Source of the DNA: Porphyromonas gingivalis ATCC 33277
GTDB taxonomy: Bacteria > Bacteroidota > Bacteroidia > Bacteroidales > Porphyromonadaceae
DNA: 64,000 nucleotides
Direction of reading: 5' to 3'
Assembly: GCF_000010505.1 (NCBI RefSeq)
Contig: NC_010729.1
Coordinates: forward strand, 792,501 to 856,500
The notes below the pieces were generated by a model, which was not told the origin of the DNA, made no database searches, and worked only from the letters and a program-made list of their open reading frames with translations. The translations under genes were made by a program, and so were the position numbers. This document shows positions 1-14,510 of the stretch, piece by piece; positions within the stretch are counted from its first letter, which is position 1; each line of letters begins with the position of its first letter.

Positions 1-822
1 GAACTGATAGTTTGCTTCTCCATGCGGCACGTGATAGTTGCCTCCCAACGGGTAGGATAGTGCGTGGACGGCTCCTACTCCTGCATTTCCGAAGGCTATA
101 CCGGCATAGTTGCTGGCCATGATCATTTCTCCCAGCTTTTCGAAGCGGTATTCAGGGCCGTGTTCGGCGATTTTCTTGAATACTTCCAGGATAATGTCCC
201 AAGCCGCCTCACTGAACAGACGAGAATATGGACTGGCTTTAGGAGATACGTATGACTCGATGGCATGGATAAGAGCATCGATTGCACTGCATGCGTAGAA
301 GTGGAAAGGCAAGCTCTTCAGAAGTTCAGGTATGATGATGGCATGGTCTGCAACAATGGCATCGTCAGCCAATCCCATTTTGGTGTGACGGCTTTTGATT
401 TCTGCGATAGAAATGTTCGTCACCTCGCTACCCGTTCCGCATGTTGTGGGCACAATGATCAGTTCTTTCTCTTTGATAAGAGGTATTTTGCGGTCGAATG
501 CATCGAGTACATCATTTAATCCTTTCAGAACGAAAAGTTTAGAGATGTCAATAACCGTACCTCCTCCGATACCGATTACGCGGTCGAACTGGATATTACG
601 GATGTCTGCCAAGATGTTATTCATCATTTCGTCAGAAGGCTCGCCTTGCCCATATTTCTCCTGCATAACAAAATGGCAGGGGAGCTGGCATGCCTTCATA
701 TACGGTTCATAGATGAACTCGTTGGTAATTACCAAGTCGCGTTCTCCAAGACAGAATTCCTTGGCAAATTCTGCAAAAGTGTCAAAGTGATGTGTTACAC
801 TCTTGAGTTTGAAAAGTTGCAT
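1..822 (-). CDS. 4hbD: NAD-dependent 4-hydroxybutyrate dehydrogenase (3' end cut by window edge)
   Basis: This is an iron-containing alcohol dehydrogenase that interconverts succinate semialdehyde and 4-hydroxybutyrate in the cytoplasm. The frame is open from an ATG at 822 to the window edge, so about 274 residues are visible and the C-terminus is missing. Visible family motifs are the nucleotide-binding GGGTVID (about residue 100), PTTCGTGSEVT and a histidine-rich metal segment (AVHALSYPVGG followed by VPHGEAN). It is the last visible gene of the abfD/NifU-like/abfT operon, about 50 bp behind abfT, which fixes its substrate more firmly than the fold alone would. Another type III alcohol dehydrogenase specificity cannot be excluded from sequence. 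Confidence 0.88.
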   Translation of the reverse strand, partial: MQLFKLKSVTHHFDTFAEFAKEFCLGERDLVITNEFIYEPYMKACQLPCHFVMQEKYGQGEPSDEMMNNILADIRNIQFDRVIGIGGGTVIDISKLFVLKGLNDVLDAFDRKIPLIKEKELIIVPTTCGTGSEVTNISIAEIKSRHTKMGLADDAIVADHAIIIPELLKSLPFHFYACSAIDALIHAIESYVSPKASPYSRLFSEAAWDIILEVFKKIAEHGPEYRFEKLGEMIMASNYAGIAFGNAGVGAVHALSYPLGGNYHVPHGEANYQF

Positions 823-2173: not shown

Positions 2174-2473
2174 CTATTTGGGTTTTCTCAAAATATTCTT
2201 GGCTTGTTCTAACAGATCATCGCTAACACTATTTTCAAGAATGACATCGATGTTGTCATCTTTGAAGTATTCGCGTATCATGGCTTGAACGATTTTTTCT
2301 ACTGTCTCATGTGCTGCCGGACAGAATCGGCATGCTCCGGAAAACCGCACAAAAACGGTCTTATCCTTGATTTGAGATAAAGATAAGTCGCCCCCGTGAC
2401 TGCGCAGTAGCGGACTGATCCGCTCGCGCAGTACGAGTTCGACTATTTCTTCTGTCATTGTATCCGGTTTCAC
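2174..2473 (-). CDS. NifU C-terminal-domain protein (Fe-S cluster carrier)
   Basis: This 99-residue protein consists almost entirely of a NifU-type C-terminal domain. The cluster-binding pair is visible in ACRFCPAAHETV (CxxC), preceded by the usual acidic helix and a LRSHGGDLSL segment. Such domains carry and deliver [4Fe-4S] clusters. Its place between abfD, a [4Fe-4S]/FAD enzyme, and abfT suggests that it services AbfD; that is inference. ATG codons occur at 2473 and 2458. The first is used here, and the second would remove five residues ahead of the domain. Confidence 0.85.
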   Translation of the reverse strand: MKPDTMTEEIVELVLRERISPLLRSHGGDLSLSQIKDKTVFVRFSGACRFCPAAHETVEKIVQAMIREYFKDDNIDVILENSVSDDLLEQAKNILRKPK

Positions 2474-2530
2474 GGTTGCGTTATAATCCGTCTTCTAAAT
2501 ACATCAAACAGATAAGTGAAGGAGAGCCGA

Positions 2531-3991
2531 TTACTTATCGAGTGATTCGTCGATATGAGCAATCGCCCGTGCAAGCTTTTTCTTGCCCTCAAGATCTCCC
2601 TGACGAGCGATCATGATTCTCTGAGCTTGAGGAGATCCGGCTCCGTGCATAGACTCGGTTCGATAACCGACGGCAGCTGTTCCCAGCGTGATATTCTCTA
2701 TCAAACGCAGAACACGCATACGGTTTTCTGTCGATTTGCCTGTTGCCCCTGCAAGATATTTCTTTACGATCGGGCCTATTTCCGGATGGCGGAAGTCTTG
2801 TTGAGAAGGCATGGTTACCATCAAACCTCCTGCAATATCTTCTGCCAAGCGAGCTATTTCATAAGGAAGGCGGGTGATATTTTGCTTACAAACATTAGCT
2901 AACAGCAAATCGATCATATAGTTGCCGGCTTTCATCTGAGTTCCCTCTGAAGAGCATGCAATACCGCAAGCATAAAGGGTTTCATTCAGGTGGATCATCT
3001 CAATGAGTTTATCCTTAATGTGAGATGCCTTAGGAACTCCATTGTAGTCTGCTGCGAGAGCAGCTGCACCGATAAGTACATCACCAACACCTACTTTACA
3101 TCCTCCATAAGACTGACGGTGGTATCCGGCGAAACGTTCTACCATCATACCTGCAAACTGGTATTCTTTGCACATGAACACGCGGTCATTGGGCACGAAT
3201 ACGCGGTCGAATACAACAAGAGCTTCATGTCCGCCGAATTCAGAGTTGCCGAGGTCAATGTCTGCCCCTTCTTCCATTTTGCGAGTGTCGCATGACTGGC
3301 GGCCATAGATCATAATAACGCCCTCTGCATCACTGGGAACGGCAAAAGAAACGGCATAGTCAGCATCAGCTTCGCGCATAGCGATCGTAGGCATGATCAG
3401 ATGCTCGTGCGAATTGACTGCTCCGGTTTGGTGTGCCTTTGCACCGGAAACGACGATCCCATCTTCACGAACTTCAACAATGTGCAGATAAAGATCCGGA
3501 TCGGCTTGTTCTGAGGGAGATAAACCGCGATCCCCTTTGGGGTCTGTCATGGCTCCATCTACGACCAAGTCGTTGTCTTGTACATATTTCATGTACTCGA
3601 TGAAACGCTTGTGATAAGTGGTACCCAGAGCTTGATCCATTTCGTAAGTAGTAGAATAGATGGCATTGAATGCATCCATTCCCACACAACGCTGGAAGCA
3701 TGAAGCTGTTTTTTGTCCCATGAGACGCTGCATCTTCACTTTGTCTTTCAGATCCTCTGTGCTCTGATGTAGATGGCAGAAACGATTCACTTGCTTACCA
3801 GTCAAGTTTGAAGTTGCTGTCATTAAATGCTTGTATTCGTCCATCTCAGCAAGCTTATAAGTCATAGCTACTGAATTCATTGAGGGACGAATCATGGGAT
3901 GATCTACAGGGTTTTCGATCCTTTCACCCATGAAGTAAACCTTCAGATTAAGTTTCCGAAGACTTTCTACGTACTGTTCGCTAGTCATCAT
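2531..3991 (-). CDS. abfD: 4-hydroxybutyryl-CoA dehydratase / vinylacetyl-CoA delta-isomerase
   Basis: AbfD dehydrates 4-hydroxybutyryl-CoA to crotonyl-CoA through a ketyl-radical mechanism that uses FAD and a [4Fe-4S] cluster. The product has 486 residues, the usual length. The cluster ligands known from the Clostridium aminobutyricum enzyme are all recognisable: two cysteines in SCFQRC (about residues 98 and 102), a histidine and a cysteine in GYHRQSYGGCKVG. Two ATGs are adjacent at the start (3991 and 3988). It is the first gene of the operon, about 315 nt downstream of the cobalamin riboswitch on the same strand. Its product feeds butyrate formation and needs no B12. Confidence 0.95.
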   Translation of the reverse strand: MMTSEQYVESLRKLNLKVYFMGERIENPVDHPMIRPSMNSVAMTYKLAEMDEYKHLMTATSNLTGKQVNRFCHLHQSTEDLKDKVKMQRLMGQKTASCFQRCVGMDAFNAIYSTTYEMDQALGTTYHKRFIEYMKYVQDNDLVVDGAMTDPKGDRGLSPSEQADPDLYLHIVEVREDGIVVSGAKAHQTGAVNSHEHLIMPTIAMREADADYAVSFAVPSDAEGVIMIYGRQSCDTRKMEEGADIDLGNSEFGGHEALVVFDRVFVPNDRVFMCKEYQFAGMMVERFAGYHRQSYGGCKVGVGDVLIGAAALAADYNGVPKASHIKDKLIEMIHLNETLYACGIACSSEGTQMKAGNYMIDLLLANVCKQNITRLPYEIARLAEDIAGGLMVTMPSQQDFRHPEIGPIVKKYLAGATGKSTENRMRVLRLIENITLGTAAVGYRTESMHGAGSPQAQRIMIARQGDLEGKKKLARAIAHIDESLDK

Positions 3992-4304
3992 AGTTTCTTT
4001 GCTCTTTAAGTGATAAAACTTTCGCTTTATTTCTGTTTTTAGTCGATTCTAATGTGTTTCAGGCTCTTCGAGGAAAAGTTTTAGATTCCTTGTAGGCCAG
4101 GACTGGGGTTCTTTTTCTGGTTTACAGGTGTTAGAGCGGTTAGAAGAGGAAATTTCCAGTGTTTGAATTGGCTCTGATATGCCGAAAAATACGAAAAAAG
4201 TCGAAAAGAATCAATATCCTCCGACAATCAACGTGAATACAACAATCAAAAGTAACACAGACTCTTCTTTATCTCTAATCCCTGAGATCCAGAGAGAACG
4301 CTTG

Positions 4305-4480
4305 TAATGGCAGGTCTTCTGACTTATTCAAGGCTTCGCTGCCTTCCCATACGATTCTGTATAGTGGCTTTCTCGTGGCAAAACCCTTACATCTGAACTT
4401 ACAGCTGAGGGTACAGTCCCAGAATTTCACTGGGTTCCCTTTTCATTCTACACTCCATGAACCGGTGTAGAAAACCATTG
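4305..4480 (-). promoter_or_regulatory. Cobalamin (adenosylcobalamin) riboswitch upstream of the abfD operon
   Basis: Read on the minus strand, this stretch has the ordered landmarks of the cobalamin riboswitch: an AAAAGGGAA core near 4440, a following GTGAAATTC segment, CAGCTGTAAG near 4405, GCCACT near 4370, GGGAAGGC near 4345, and a terminal B12 box AGTCAGAAGACCTGCC at 4309-4324. The only gene it can lead into on this strand is abfD. Between aptamer and start codon lie about 315 nt without a convincing terminator hairpin, so the mode of control (termination, masking of the start, or processing) cannot be read here. A TACTTTTG box at 4247-4254 could be an internal promoter that bypasses the switch. 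I see no gene in the rest of 3992-4634. Confidence 0.9.
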
Positions 4481-4634
4481 ACACGGCAAAGATATTCATT
4501 ATATCTATACTAGTGCGGAAAATTGAAGAAAAAAATATGGATTTGTTTGAGGATATCTTTCAGTATACGTCATTAAGGCTAATCGGGTGTGAAATGTCGC
4601 TGATGCTTTATGTGTTCGTGTGTAAATAAAAACT

Positions 4635-4661
4635 GAGGCTGTCTCATGGCGAGACAGCCTC
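4635..4661 (-). terminator. Rho-independent terminator of the omp41-omp40 operon
   Basis: An 11-bp perfect stem with a 5-nt loop lies 31 nt beyond the omp40 stop codon. It is followed on the minus strand by a T-rich run (AGTTTTATTT). Confidence 0.85.
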
Positions 4662-4691
4662 CGCTTCATTTATTTGTGGGGATATTTGAGA

Positions 4692-5834
4692 TTATTCCGC
4701 TGCAGTCATTACTACAATACGATTCCAAGCGTTCTCTTCATAGATTTGCTCTGATGAGCCCTTCCATTCAATTGTAATGCGATCCGCAGAAACGCCATAC
4801 TTTTCAAGCATCTTGGCTACCGCTTTTGCACGACGCTCTGAGAGCTTCATGTTATAGGCCGCAGTACCGGTCTTTTCGTCAGCGTAACCTACTACCTTGA
4901 TCGGTGCGTTGTTGGTCTTCGCATATTCAGCTGTATTGTAAACATTGATTTCTTGATTACGATCAATCTTTGCACTATTGATACGGAAGTAAACCACATT
5001 GTCAACGACTACACGAGTAACTGTAGGCTGTGTAGGCTCAGGGCATTCAGGGCATGAAACAGGACGACGGCTCAACTCTTCCACCTGACCGCGAAGTGAG
5101 TTGATTTGGTTGTTCAGGTCATTGACCAAAGCATAGTCCATAGGAACAATTTCTGTCCACTCTGTCTTGCCCAGGTTGAATGTAAGACCTGCTGTAGCCA
5201 TTACAGGGAAGTCTGCTTTTCCTCTCTTAGTCCCGATAAAGTTCATCTTTCCGGCAAAAGCTTGGCCTTCGATATTGAAGTCTACAACTCTGGAGAGACG
5301 GAATTTCATCATCAAACCGACATTAACTGTTCCGGTTATATCATCTTTACTTCCTACTTTTTCACCATTAGCGTTTTCGCTATGGAATTTATCACCAAAT
5401 CCTATACCTGCCCACGGGATGATATGGAAGACACGATTGGGACGGTATACACCGAAATAGTTCGTCAGATCGAACATGAAGTCGAGGTGGGCATTTCCAA
5501 AGTAGTTGTGGTTACGCTCCTTGCTTCCTTGCGGGAATCCATAGATGTCAAATCCTGTGAATTGGAGACGAGTACCGAAATAAGGCTCATGCCATTTGCC
5601 GATACTGAAAGTAGGAACGATACTTAGACGATCTACAAAGTCTACATCATTATTCCATCCCGAGAGAGCCATGCCTGCTCCACCTGCAATGTCAATGAAC
5701 CAATGATCGGAGGCCTTATCACGTTGGAATGCGGTGTGCATCCCTGCTTTGTTCTGTGTAGTAGCTTCTTGGGCTGTTGCACTGAATGTGCATGCGAGAC
5801 CCGCAAGTGCTAATAATAAAGATTTAGCTTTCAT
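4692..5834 (-). CDS. omp40: OmpA-family outer membrane protein Omp40 (Pgm7-type)
   Basis: This is a major outer membrane protein with an N-terminal beta-barrel and a C-terminal peptidoglycan-binding OmpA domain. The ATG at 5834 gives 380 residues beginning with a clean signal peptide (MKAKSLLLALAGLACTFSA, then TAQ); an in-frame start 15 nt upstream would place extra residues before it. A short coiled segment (QINSLRGQVEEL) and a cysteine pair in PVSCPECPE link barrel and OmpA domain. The OmpA domain shows VVGYADEKTG and KLSERRAKAV. It forms an operon with its 391-residue paralogue 46 bp upstream; in P. gingivalis the two products are known to form heterotrimers that anchor the outer membrane. 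The name follows length and gene order. Confidence 0.9.
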   Translation of the reverse strand: MKAKSLLLALAGLACTFSATAQEATTQNKAGMHTAFQRDKASDHWFIDIAGGAGMALSGWNNDVDFVDRLSIVPTFSIGKWHEPYFGTRLQFTGFDIYGFPQGSKERNHNYFGNAHLDFMFDLTNYFGVYRPNRVFHIIPWAGIGFGDKFHSENANGEKVGSKDDITGTVNVGLMMKFRLSRVVDFNIEGQAFAGKMNFIGTKRGKADFPVMATAGLTFNLGKTEWTEIVPMDYALVNDLNNQINSLRGQVEELSRRPVSCPECPEPTQPTVTRVVVDNVVYFRINSAKIDRNQEINVYNTAEYAKTNNAPIKVVGYADEKTGTAAYNMKLSERRAKAVAKMLEKYGVSADRITIEWKGSSEQIYEENAWNRIVVMTAAE

Positions 5835-11553: not shown

Positions 11554-12090
11554 ATGAGCCAAAAGCCTACAAACGATCGGAAAATCATCCTCATTACCGG
11601 CGGACAACGTTCGGGCAAAAGTCTCTATGCCGAGCAGATGGCACTAGCGCTGTCCGCTCATCCTATCTACCTGGCTACGGCGAGGATTTGGGATGATGAG
11701 TTCGCTCAGCGAGTGGCAGTACACCGTGAGAGACGAGGCTCTGAGTGGACCAATATGGAGGAAGAGAAGGTGCTGAGTCGCCACAATCCGCTCGGAGAAG
11801 TGATTTTGATCGATTGTCTGACGCTTTGGGCTACTAATTATTTCTTTGACAACGACTCCGATGTGGAGCTTGCATATGCGGCTCTCTGTGCAGAGTTCGA
11901 TTCCTTTACATCGCATTCGGGTACGTTCATCTTCGTTACCAATGAGATCGGATTGGGAGGAGTGGCAGAGAACGCTGTCCAGAGGCATTTTGCCGATCTG
12001 CTGGGCAGGCTCAATCAGTACGTAGCTGCACGGGCCGATCGTGTCGTCTTGATGATCAGCGGCATTCCCATGGTCATTAAAGGGGACTAA
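11554..12090 (+). CDS. cobU: Adenosylcobinamide kinase / adenosylcobinamide-phosphate guanylyltransferase
   Basis: CobU phosphorylates adenosylcobinamide and transfers GMP to give AdoCbi-GDP, the activated corrinoid for lower-loop attachment. The 178-residue product is of normal length. It shows a P-loop near the start (GGQRSGKSLYAE), DCLTLWATN and VTNEIGLGGV, the last being diagnostic for the family. It opens a tight plus-strand operon cobU-cobT-cobS-cobC. A TATTTTTG box lies at 11514-11521, but without a well-spaced -33 element. Confidence 0.93.
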   Translation: MSQKPTNDRKIILITGGQRSGKSLYAEQMALALSAHPIYLATARIWDDEFAQRVAVHRERRGSEWTNMEEEKVLSRHNPLGEVILIDCLTLWATNYFFDNDSDVELAYAALCAEFDSFTSHSGTFIFVTNEIGLGGVAENAVQRHFADLLGRLNQYVAARADRVVLMISGIPMVIKGD

Positions 12091-12142
12091 AAACCGTGCC
12101 TGTCGAGAGTAATATAATAAGGAAAGGAAACGATACTGCCGG

Positions 12143-13180
12143 ATGAAAACATTCAATATCAAAAGCCCCGATCAAGCTATCCGTCAAGCCCTGATCGATC
12201 GGATCGACAACCTGGCGAAGCCTGAGGGTTCGTTGGGAATGCTCGAGGAACTTGCCCTGCAAATCGGGCTTATACAGCAGACCCTATCTCCTCGACTCCG
12301 TAATCCTCACAACATAATCTTTGCCGCGGATCATGGTATTGCCGACGAAGGAGTCAGCTTTTCGCCCAAGGAGGTCACTTGGCAGGTAATCAATAATTTT
12401 CTCGGTGGCGGTGCCGGTATCAATTTCCTCTGCCGTCAGCATGGATTCGAACTCGTGCTGGTGGATGGAGGTATCGACTTCGATTTTCCCGAAGGATTGG
12501 ACATTATCGACCGTAAGGTGCGGAAAGGTACGCGAAACTATTTGTACGAAGCGGCACTGACCGGAGAAGAGATGGAGCAAGCTGTGACAGCCGGAGCGGA
12601 AGTCGTTAGCGACTGTCATCACCGAGGCTGCAATGTGGTGAGCTTCGGTGAGATGGGGGTGGCCAATACTTCCACCTCTTCCATGTGGATGAGCTTCCTC
12701 ACCGGAATCGACCTGAAAGATTGTGTGGGTGCCGGTAGCGGGTTGGATTCGGAGGGAGTCAGACATAAGTATAACATCCTTAAACAGGCCAAAGAAAACT
12801 ATAAAGGCAACGGATCGACCGAGGACGTCATCACTTATTTTGGAGGATTGGAGATGCTAATGGCCGTTGGGGGAATGCTTCAGGCGGCAGAGTTGGGGAT
12901 GCTGATCATCGTGGATGGATTCATCATGACCAATTGCCTCCTTGCTGCATCGCAGTTCTATCCCGAAGTCTGCGACTATGCCGTATTCGGTCACTGCGGC
13001 GACGAATCGGGGCATGCACGCCTGCTGGAGTATATGAAGGCCAAACCTCTTCTGAATCTGGGGCTTCGCTTGGGAGAAGGTTCCGGAGCGGTGTGCTCAT
13101 ACCCCATCATAGTATCGGCCGTCAGCATGATCAACGAAATGCATACTTTTGCTCAAGCGGCTGTGACTAAGTATTTCTAA
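12143..13180 (+). CDS. cobT: Nicotinate-nucleotide--dimethylbenzimidazole phosphoribosyltransferase
   Basis: CobT makes the alpha-ribazole phosphate that becomes the lower ligand of cobalamin. The product has 345 residues. The fingerprint [12 protein letters not shown] and a C-terminal [11 protein letters not shown] with the expected catalytic glutamate are present, along with [13 protein letters not shown] near the N-terminus. It is separated from cobU by 52 bp and from cobS by 6 bp, consistent with one transcript. Confidence 0.95.
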
Positions 13181-13186
13181 AAGTTC

Positions 13187-13969
13187 ATGAAGGAAAAGCA
13201 GGCAAAACCATATCAGCGAATATTGGCAGCATTTATGCTGCTCACACGCTTACCGCTGTGGCGTTTGGTGAGTGTCCCTGATGCTGCTTTCAAGCGCGCC
13301 ACCGATTATTGGAGTCTGGTGGGTTGGCTTACGGGAGGACTGATGGTTCTAATCTGCCACTTGGGACTACTGATCGACCTCCCTGTCACTATGGTCGTTT
13401 CCCTTGCACTCCTCTCTCGCGTTCTCTTTACAGGGGCTTTCCATGAGGATGGATTGGGTGATTTCTTCGATGGATTCGGTGCAGGGCGAACCAAGGAGCG
13501 CATCTTGGCTATCATGAAAGATTCGCATACGGGTACTTATGGTATTCTGTCCTTCATCTTTTACTTCATGATAGGGATCTATTCTCTGTCTTCTCTCCCT
13601 CCGATCCTGACGCTTGTCGCATTAGGTGTGGGCGATCCTCTGTGCAAATTGGTGGCCTCCCAGCTCATCAATACGCTTCCCTACGCCCGTTCCGAGGACG
13701 AGAGTAAGGTGCAAGCCATATACAGTCCGATGGGTGTCTTGGCTTTTTGGGTCTCATTCTCTGCCGGAGCTTTGCCCTTGGCCCTCTTTCTTCCACTCCC
13801 TTATTGGCCGGCAGTTTTGATCCCCATTTTGGCTTTCCTCTTGCTGCGCGGTCTTATGAAGCGGAAGATAGGCGGTTATACAGGCGATTGCTGCGGAGCT
13901 ACTTTTCTTCTCTGTGAGCTGTCTTTTTGGGTAGGAATGCTTATTATGAATAGGATCATAGAATTGTAA
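13187..13969 (+). CDS. cobS: Adenosylcobinamide-GDP ribazoletransferase (cobalamin synthase)
   Basis: CobS joins AdoCbi-GDP and alpha-ribazole (phosphate) in the inner membrane. The 260-residue protein has several hydrophobic segments. The two acidic family motifs are clear: FHEDGLGDFFDGFGAG near residue 85 and GYTGDCCGA near residue 230. It sits between cobT and the phosphatase gene, with the next ATG overlapping its stop region by about one base. Confidence 0.95.
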   Translation: MKEKQAKPYQRILAAFMLLTRLPLWRLVSVPDAAFKRATDYWSLVGWLTGGLMVLICHLGLLIDLPVTMVVSLALLSRVLFTGAFHEDGLGDFFDGFGAGRTKERILAIMKDSHTGTYGILSFIFYFMIGIYSLSSLPPILTLVALGVGDPLCKLVASQLINTLPYARSEDESKVQAIYSPMGVLAFWVSFSAGALPLALFLPLPYWPAVLIPILAFLLLRGLMKRKIGGYTGDCCGATFLLCELSFWVGMLIMNRIIEL

Positions 13970-13970
13970 G

Positions 13971-14510
13971 ATGCAGATTACTCTCATCCGCCACACGACT
14001 CCGGATGTCCCTGCCGGAATATGCTACGGGCAATCCGATGTACCCCTACGGGCTTCCTTTGAAGAAGAGGCCGAGGTCGTACGCCGCCGGCTATCGGGGA
14101 TGGACTTCGATGCTGTCTATACGAGTCCGCTCAGCCGCTGTGTCCGTTTGGCTCATTTTTGCGGTTATCCTGATGCCATACAAGACGGACGACTGATGGA
14201 GATTAATTTCGGTTTGTGGGAGATGCAGCGATATGACCATATCGACGATCCTCGCCTACAAGATTATTACGCGGATTATCTACGAACACCTGCAACAGGG
14301 GGCGAGAGTTTCGTCATGCAGCTGGAACGCGTAAGCAATTTTCTGGAAGAGGTGACTGCGATGCCGTTCGGGCATATAGCTATCTTCACGCATGGGGGAA
14401 CTATTCTCTGTGCTCAGGTTTATGCGGGCTTATATGAGCTTGAGACTTGCTTCGAGCACCAAACACCCTATGGGGGCATCGTTATGCTGGTCGTTTCTGA
14501 TAAAAAATAA
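13971..14510 (+). CDS. cobC: Histidine-phosphatase-family protein, probable alpha-ribazole phosphatase
   Basis: This 179-residue phosphoglycerate-mutase-like phosphatase begins MQITLIRHTTPD, giving the catalytic RH pair. YTSPLSRC and FTHGGTI supply the other expected active-site residues. Its position right after cobS supports a role in dephosphorylating alpha-ribazole phosphate or cobalamin phosphate; the family alone would not settle that substrate. Confidence 0.85.
   Translation: MQITLIRHTTPDVPAGICYGQSDVPLRASFEEEAEVVRRRLSGMDFDAVYTSPLSRCVRLAHFCGYPDAIQDGRLMEINFGLWEMQRYDHIDDPRLQDYYADYLRTPATGGESFVMQLERVSNFLEEVTAMPFGHIAIFTHGGTILCAQVYAGLYELETCFEHQTPYGGIVMLVVSDKK

What the first reader, a model, noticed from the sequence alone, without database searches (positions are those of the whole stretch)
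2174..4480. Cobalamin riboswitch controlling a B12-independent butyrate pathway
A canonical cobalamin riboswitch lies ahead of abfD-NifU-abfT-4hbD, yet none of these enzymes uses or makes B12. Established biochemistry says succinyl-CoA can go to propionate through B12-dependent methylmalonyl-CoA mutase or to butyrate through 4-hydroxybutyrate. Repression of the latter by cobalamin would switch end-products according to B12 supply. This would resemble known cases where B12 riboswitches control B12-independent isozymes, but applied to a whole competing pathway.
Basis: partly seen in the sequence, partly recalled or inferred. Interest (0 to 1): 0.7.

Follow-up and report, generated by a model that had tools for sequence, protein, structure and literature searches.

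The report
B12 riboswitch heading a butyrate operon
A vitamin B12 sensor built into RNA sits at the start of the genes with which a gum-disease bacterium makes butyrate, a pathway that needs no B12, which suggests that B12 supply helps decide whether the cell makes butyrate or propionate.

Summary
A full-length cobalamin riboswitch (RF00174, 106.3 bits, E 1.3e-25) lies on the minus strand at 4494-4292, ahead of abfD-nfu-abfT-4hbD; sucD completes the operon outside the window. The genome has the size of Porphyromonas gingivalis ATCC 33277. A terminator insulates the unit, a Bacteroidota -7 box sits at the aptamer edge, a P13/L13 hairpin can pair with L5, and a terminator-like hairpin follows.

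Of 46 readable Bacteroidota abfD operons 24 carry the riboswitch (Porphyromonas, Tannerella, Sanguibacteroides and others). All 24 genomes encode B12-dependent methylmalonyl-CoA mutase; none of six abfD genomes without the mutase has it on abfD. The tree fits one gain and seven losses, too few independent events for significance. None of 49 non-Bacteroidota loci has it.

Best reading: cobalamin lowers a B12-free succinyl-CoA-to-butyrate branch while the B12-dependent propionate branch can run. Ligand response and direction are inferred. Against a hard switch: abfD is highly expressed in vivo, 16 genomes with the mutase lack the riboswitch, and a second promoter box lies below the aptamer in P. 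gingivalis. The riboswitch-abfD link was printed for Tannerella, labelled adenosylcobalamin biosynthesis.

The parts
4635..4661 (-). terminator-like hairpin, 12 pairs plus T-rich tail, ending the upstream ompA-like unit
   Evidence: ompA-like gene 5849-4692 (-), Pfam OmpA
4487..4494 (-). TATCTTTG, Bacteroidota -7 type box at the 5' edge of the aptamer (consensus recalled)
   Evidence: such a box lies within 40 nt of the aptamer start in 19 of 24 loci, at offset 0-2 in 17
4292..4494 (-). cobalamin riboswitch aptamer (RF00174), full length
   Evidence: 106.3 bits, E 1.3e-25
4408..4411 (-). CCCU of loop L5, kissing partner of L13
4309..4325 (-). B12 box AAGUCAGAAGACCUGCC (name recalled)
   Evidence: CAGAA.ACCUGCC invariant in 20 aligned loci apart from one position
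4271..4288 (-). P13/L13 hairpin AUCUC[AGGGAUUA]GAGAU
   Evidence: predicted fold
4247..4254 (-). TACTTTTG, possible second promoter box below the aptamer
   Evidence: box in the leader of 2 of 24 loci (P. gingivalis, P. gulae)
4194..4225 (-). terminator-like hairpin GUCGGAGG...UUUUCGAC followed by six U; candidate attenuator
   Evidence: -7.5 kcal/mol, letter-shuffle mean -2.4, sd 1.8; in P. gulae a change keeps a pair (-8.0); not found by the scan, whose rules are stricter; other species not tested
2531..3991 (-). abfD, 4-hydroxybutyryl-CoA dehydratase
   Evidence: HpaB_N, HpaB; 76% identical to the Clostridium aminobutyricum protein
2174..2473 (-). Nfu/NifU C-terminal domain protein
   Evidence: PF01106, 65.9 bits
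873..2168 (-). abfT-like CoA-transferase, probably PGN_0725, the main butyryl-CoA:acetate CoA-transferase
   Evidence: PMC4949257 passages
1..822 (-). 4hbD, iron-type alcohol dehydrogenase family, runs off the window; sucD follows outside

Best explanation
The RNA from 4494 to 4271 is a working cobalamin riboswitch at the 5' end of the abfD-nfu-abfT-4hbD-sucD transcript. When cobalamin is plentiful it binds, the L5-L13 kissing loop locks, and expression of this succinyl-CoA-to-butyrate route falls, perhaps by termination at the hairpin at 4225-4194; succinyl-CoA is then left to the B12-dependent methylmalonyl-CoA mutase and propionate. When B12 is short the mutase idles and the butyrate route is released as the B12-free outlet for carbon and electrons. 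Shown by computation: aptamer, promoter-box and terminator layout, pairing potential of L5 with L13, operon, and a mutase gene in every genome with the arrangement. Inferred: ligand binding, OFF direction, the read-out step, and the change of end products.
For: Full-length RF00174 match. Isolated unit with a -7 type box at the aptamer edge. L5-L13 pairing with different letters in different species. Aptamer upstream of abfD in 24 of 46 readable Bacteroidota operons, one gain and kept through much divergence. Mutase in 24 of 24 of these genomes, aptamer on abfD in 0 of 6 abfD genomes without the mutase. A cobalamin aptamer also precedes nrdD, a B12-independent enzyme gene, in this genome and in two others. 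The operon's CoA-transferase makes most of the butyrate (PMC4949257 passages).
Against: No ligand or expression data. 16 genomes with the mutase and abfD lack the aptamer, in five of the seven loss lineages. On the tree the mutase association rests on four independent pairs, sign test p 0.25. L5-L13 pairing is no better than shuffled loops at three pairs (18 of 24 against 0.74), only at four (15 of 24 against 0.27), and in the wider region not at all. abfD is strongly expressed in periodontitis (PMC5807917 passages). A second promoter box lies below the aptamer. P13 is 167-745 nt from abfD across species, and the candidate attenuator was examined in two sister species only.
Confidence: 0.6

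Rival explanations
1. The aptamer is real but nearly irrelevant to abfD: a promoter below it (TACTTTTG, 4254-4247) supplies most of the transcript, and the riboswitch only trims the rest.
For: The box exists in P. gingivalis and as TACATTTG in P. gulae; abfD is strongly expressed in vivo; P. loveana keeps the operon with a decayed aptamer.
Against: A box in the leader is found in 2 of 24 loci, while the box at the aptamer edge is found in 19 of 24. A transcript from the lower box would still meet the hairpin at 4225-4194.
Confidence: 0.2
2. The riboswitch works on abfD, but for a reason other than competition with propionate, for example general B12-stress adjustment of redox balance or of amino acid catabolism.
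For: 16 genomes with both enzymes lack the aptamer; the mutase association has few independent events.
Against: Both routes start from succinyl-CoA (PMC9403272 passages), and all 24 carriers have the mutase.
Confidence: 0.15
3. The switch is ON, or the riboswitch makes a short RNA that ends before abfD.
For: Another aptamer of this genome seems to head a non-coding RNA; a terminator-like hairpin lies in the abfD leader.
Against: P. gingivalis and P. gulae stay 90% alike over 604 nt through the whole leader into abfD, whereas in the orphan case likeness stops abruptly. Most known cobalamin riboswitches lower expression (statement in PMC11575231, passages).
Confidence: 0.05

Closest known systems
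Cobalamin riboswitches on B12-independent isozymes (metE, nrdD-nrdG)
   Same: RNA sensor of B12 placed before an enzyme that replaces a B12-dependent one; nrdD case seen in this genome.
   Different: Here a five-gene operon of a rival pathway with another end product is controlled, not an isozyme of the same reaction.
Cobalamin riboswitch before 4-hydroxybutyryl-CoA dehydratase in Tannerella (PMC7160235, passages)
   Same: Same RNA family before the same gene; found here in three Tannerella loci as well.
   Different: That paper labels the gene adenosylcobalamin biosynthesis and draws no link to butyrate.
Cobalamin riboswitch on mutA of Veillonella (named in PMC7160235 and PMC9600662, passages)
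   Same: Acts at the same branch point, succinyl-CoA to methylmalonyl-CoA.
   Different: Controls the B12-dependent enzyme itself, not the alternative.
B12-dependent propionate formation in Xylanibacter ruminicola (PMC11575231, passages)
   Same: B12 supply changes the fate of succinate/succinyl-CoA in a Bacteroidota species.
   Different: None of its four cobalamin riboswitches lies near a propionate pathway gene, and no butyrate is made.

Membership tests
Cobalamin riboswitch RF00174 | covariance-model score above the gathering cut-off over the full model | tested here: met
   106.3 against 31.5 bits, positions 1-189 of 189
Cobalamin riboswitch RF00174 | L5-L13 kissing loop between aptamer and expression platform (PMC9600662 passages) | tested here: inconclusive
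   CCCU/AGGG possible in the window; 15 of 24 loci reach four pairs against 0.27 shuffled, but 18 of 24 against 0.74 at three pairs; no excess
Cobalamin riboswitch RF00174 | binds cobalamin and changes expression | not testable with these tools
   needs probing and expression measurements
Riboswitch control of a B12-independent alternative | controlled enzymes use no B12 | tested here: met
   HpaB, NifU, CoA-transferase, Fe-ADH and aldehyde dehydrogenase families; cofactors recalled
Riboswitch control of a B12-independent alternative | B12-dependent counterpart in the same genome | tested here: met
   PF01642 in 24 of 24 carriers
Riboswitch control of a B12-independent alternative | alternative carries out the same reaction as the B12 enzyme | tested here: not met
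   by pathway knowledge the two routes share the substrate, not the product; so not an isozyme pair
4-hydroxybutyryl-CoA dehydratase (AbfD) | HpaB superfamily domains and high identity to the Clostridium aminobutyricum enzyme | tested here: met
   (76% over residues 1-480, L038); Fe-S and flavin ligands not checked residue by residue
4-hydroxybutyrate CoA-transferase (AbfT) | activity on 4-hydroxybutyrate | not testable with these tools
   PMC4949257 passages report no such activity for PGN_0725

The most novel reading that the evidence does not exclude
In Porphyromonas, Tannerella and relatives a cobalamin riboswitch is a branch-point valve: it sets the butyrate/propionate ratio by vitamin supply, turning down a complete competing B12-free fermentation pathway. 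It was acquired once in Bacteroidota and lost where the B12-dependent branch was lost or the link relaxed, as in P. loveana.
Probability: 0.45. Interest if true: 0.75.

Novelty: new variant of a known kind. Interest (0 to 1): 0.6.

Why it matters
Butyrate and propionate in gum crevices go with severity of periodontal disease (stated in PMC4949257). If a riboswitch ties the choice between them to B12, the vitamin, made or competed for by neighbours, becomes a control signal for end products in a community. It would extend the logic of B12 riboswitches from isozymes to a whole rival pathway. It makes a direct prediction: species with the aptamer respond to cobalamin, P. loveana does not.

Tried and rejected
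Tried without result: the order-wide RF00174 scan lists only the 150 best places of 393 genomes, so it was not used to pair aptamers with genes. A terminator in the leader by the pattern scan: none on this strand; a looser fold does show one candidate at 4225-4194. A conserved leader peptide: read by eye, start codons near P13 come and go between sister species. Rho-type C-over-G stretches: present in some leaders, not in Tannerella.

Considered and rejected: a B12-regulated succinate exporter. The riboswitch at G000:C1:985515-985726 lies 0.5 kb before a YidE/AspT-like transporter, but pairing the listings by eye shows that link only in P. gingivalis and P. gulae, and the aptamer seems to head a non-coding RNA. 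Repeated independent recruitment of abfD aptamers: the aptamer tree favours mostly shared descent, with L024 and L090 placed elsewhere with weak support.

Limits of the counts: one search kept 80 of 105 relatives. Four operons at contig edges were dropped: L007/G499, L118/G489, L094/G080 and L097/G194. L097 had first been counted as lacking the riboswitch (p 0.0039 on 47 operons); one search repeats the test without it. The mutase may be missed through incompleteness in L012, L027, L032, G475 (88% complete, abfD broken) and G092 (74%). The 49 non-Bacteroidota loci hold at least about 500 nt upstream of abfD, not always more. One search tested 47 of those 49 loci, three contigs being of one genome. 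One search aligned 20 of 24 loci; one search used 19 of 24 abfD aptamers.

Papers: ten searches. In their listings and in the passages I read, only PMC7160235 names a riboswitch before abfD, and I saw none that describes cobalamin control of butyrate formation in Porphyromonas or Tannerella. Hovik et al. 2012, Vitreschak 2003, Nahvi 2003 and the Batey review were not held, so earlier mention cannot be excluded.

Full report
What is there. The Rfam cobalamin model matches 4494-4292 on the minus strand from end to end, 106.3 bits, E 1.3e-25. The genome is one contig of 2,354,886 bases, the size of P. gingivalis ATCC 33277 (size match recalled), with five such aptamers; this one scores highest. 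Downstream on the same strand run abfD, an Nfu-domain gene, the CoA-transferase gene called abfT, 4hbD and, beyond the window edge, sucD. In 53 related loci examined abfT follows abfD in all; 4hbD and sucD follow in 28 of the 31 long loci, the other three contigs ending earlier. No protein of the operon belongs to a family that I know to use or make B12 (families).

Transcription layout. A 12-pair terminator at 4661-4635 separates the ompA-like gene from the riboswitch. TATCTTTG, the Bacteroidota -7 box (consensus recalled), lies at 4494-4487, at the aptamer's edge. Such a box lies within 40 nt of the aptamer start in 19 of 24 riboswitch-abfD loci, at offset 0-2 in 17, against 5.1% expected per 80-nt window of shuffled letters. 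It could drive a B12-blind transcript in these two.

Expression platform. Right after the aptamer a hairpin AUCUC[AGGGAUUA]GAGAU (4288-4271) presents AGGG, which can pair with CCCU of L5 (4411-4408). This is the place of the L5-L13 kissing loop described for cobalamin riboswitches in PMC9600662 (passages). Across 24 loci the pair appears as CCCC/GGGG, CCCU/AGGG, CUCU/AGAG (the P. uenonis group) and CGCG/CGCG (L090). In the loop predicted by folding, 15 of 24 reach four Watson-Crick pairs against 0.27 for shuffled loops; at three pairs it is 18 of 24 against 0.74, no excess; in the wider region run length is no better than chance. The changing letters are the better argument. Next comes a terminator-like hairpin at 4225-4200 followed by six U: -7.5 kcal/mol against a shuffled mean of -2.4 (sd 1.8); in P. 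gulae a G-U pair is an A-U pair. It is a candidate attenuator, seen in two sister species and not tested in others; the pattern scan did not report it. P13 lies 167-745 nt before abfD in the 24 loci.

Distribution. abfD was found in 10 of 393 genomes of the order and in 26 of 38 of the family. Merging and dropping four operons cut by contig ends gives 46 readable Bacteroidota operons. The aptamer lies on the same strand less than 800 nt upstream in 24. It is absent from all 49 non-Bacteroidota loci, mostly Clostridia, and from Geothrix L034, whose operon is otherwise the same. The abfD tree of 56 rows needs 9 changes of this label against 18.2 for shuffled labels; among rows of known state it needs 8, most simply one gain at the base of a supported 42-row clade (97/85) and seven losses. 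Aptamers agree in part: 17 of 19 abfD aptamers fall in one 22-row group (95/76) that also holds four others and a duplicate.

The link with the B12-dependent branch. Methylmalonyl-CoA mutase (PF01642) is encoded in all 24 riboswitch-abfD genomes and in 16 of the 22 without the riboswitch; it was not found in 6. None of those 6 has the riboswitch on abfD, although three have cobalamin riboswitches elsewhere (3, 1 and 1). Fisher p is 0.0080, but the rows are related: only four independent pairs exist on the tree and the sign test gives p 0.25. The cleanest case is P. circumdentaria, nested among riboswitch-bearing Porphyromonas: no mutase and no RF00174 match at all. The case against is as plain: five of seven loss lineages keep the mutase. 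One is P. loveana, whose sequence still aligns with window 4509-4410, the promoter box and 5' part of the aptamer, at 72% over 105 nt but no longer matches the model even at E 10. In 47 non-Bacteroidota abfD genomes the mutase was found in 6.

Function. In P. gingivalis PGN_0725, by family and gene order the window's abfT, is the main butyryl-CoA:acetate transferase; [quoted passage not shown] The operon is therefore the butyrate-forming unit even if one annotation is wrong. Other cobalamin aptamers of this genome precede a TonB-type receptor (nearest model TonB-B12, below its cut-off), a BtuC-like transporter operon (also below cut-off) and nrdD-nrdG; nrdD also follows an aptamer in P. uenonis L177 and COT-184 L182. 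So cobalamin control of a B12-independent alternative is already part of the logic of these cells. I conclude that cobalamin most likely lowers the butyrate branch so that succinyl-CoA goes to propionate when B12 allows (0.6). Tight repression is unlikely: abfD (PG0692) stands in a table beside elongation factors and RNA polymerase subunits for P. gingivalis in periodontitis (PMC5807917 passages).

What is known. Five cobalamin riboswitches in P. gingivalis were already annotated (PMC5771137 passages), one of them before PGN_0704 (PMC3764172 passages). A riboswitch before 4-hydroxybutyryl-CoA dehydratase was printed for Tannerella, labelled adenosylcobalamin biosynthesis (PMC7160235 passages). 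In ten paper searches (listed under Tried and rejected) I saw no statement that cobalamin controls the butyrate branch. So the element is known; reading it as control of a branch point is, as far as I could search, not in print; and it is a variant of the known control of B12-independent isozymes.

Noticed in passing
G000:C1:985515-985726 (-) and about 225 nt downstream; L123, L126, L156, L190, L176: This cobalamin riboswitch is followed by no conserved ORF but by a structured stretch (starts CGAGGAAA, several hairpins, long terminal hairpin capped by ATGAGC, U-rich end). P. gingivalis and P. gulae are 97% alike over 437 nt, then diverge abruptly; P. macacae and G479 fold alike; 14 of 28 pairs of the terminal hairpin show compensatory changes in four sequences. 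Rfam lists nothing else there at gathering score. Candidate cobalamin-riboswitch-headed non-coding RNA.
   Followed up: partly
L006 about 4590-4800, P. loveana: Decayed aptamer ahead of an otherwise intact abfD operon; the box at its edge is kept. A natural loss-of-riboswitch control.
   Followed up: partly
G000:C1:1552755-1553013 (-), L124; L177; L182: Cobalamin riboswitches before nrdD (with nrdG in P. gingivalis), a B12-independent ribonucleotide reductase.
   Followed up: partly
window 11554-14510 (+): cobU, a cobT-type phosphoribosyltransferase, cobS and a histidine-phosphatase gene, B12 nucleotide-loop assembly, lie 7 kb from the abfD riboswitch; no RF00174 match precedes them in the window.
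   Followed up: partly
L009:88-297, Tannerella forsythia ATCC 43037; G479:C1:409109-409323: A second, nearly identical aptamer 4.2 kb upstream of the abfD aptamer in one Tannerella strain, and a second aptamer 1.65 kb upstream in G479 with no ORF of 120 aa starting within 1.5 kb.
   Followed up: no
G189:C12, G343:C1, G489:C22, G491:C163, G492:C1: In five genomes a YidE/AspT-like transporter paralogue lies about 1.1 kb from a methylmalonyl-CoA mutase subunit gene on the same strand; a possible dicarboxylate carrier.
   Followed up: no
L120:620-2203 (-), beyond sucD outside the window: A protein with hemerythrin, PAS and DUF1858 domains lies just past sucD on the same strand; a possible redox or oxygen sensor.
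   Followed up: no
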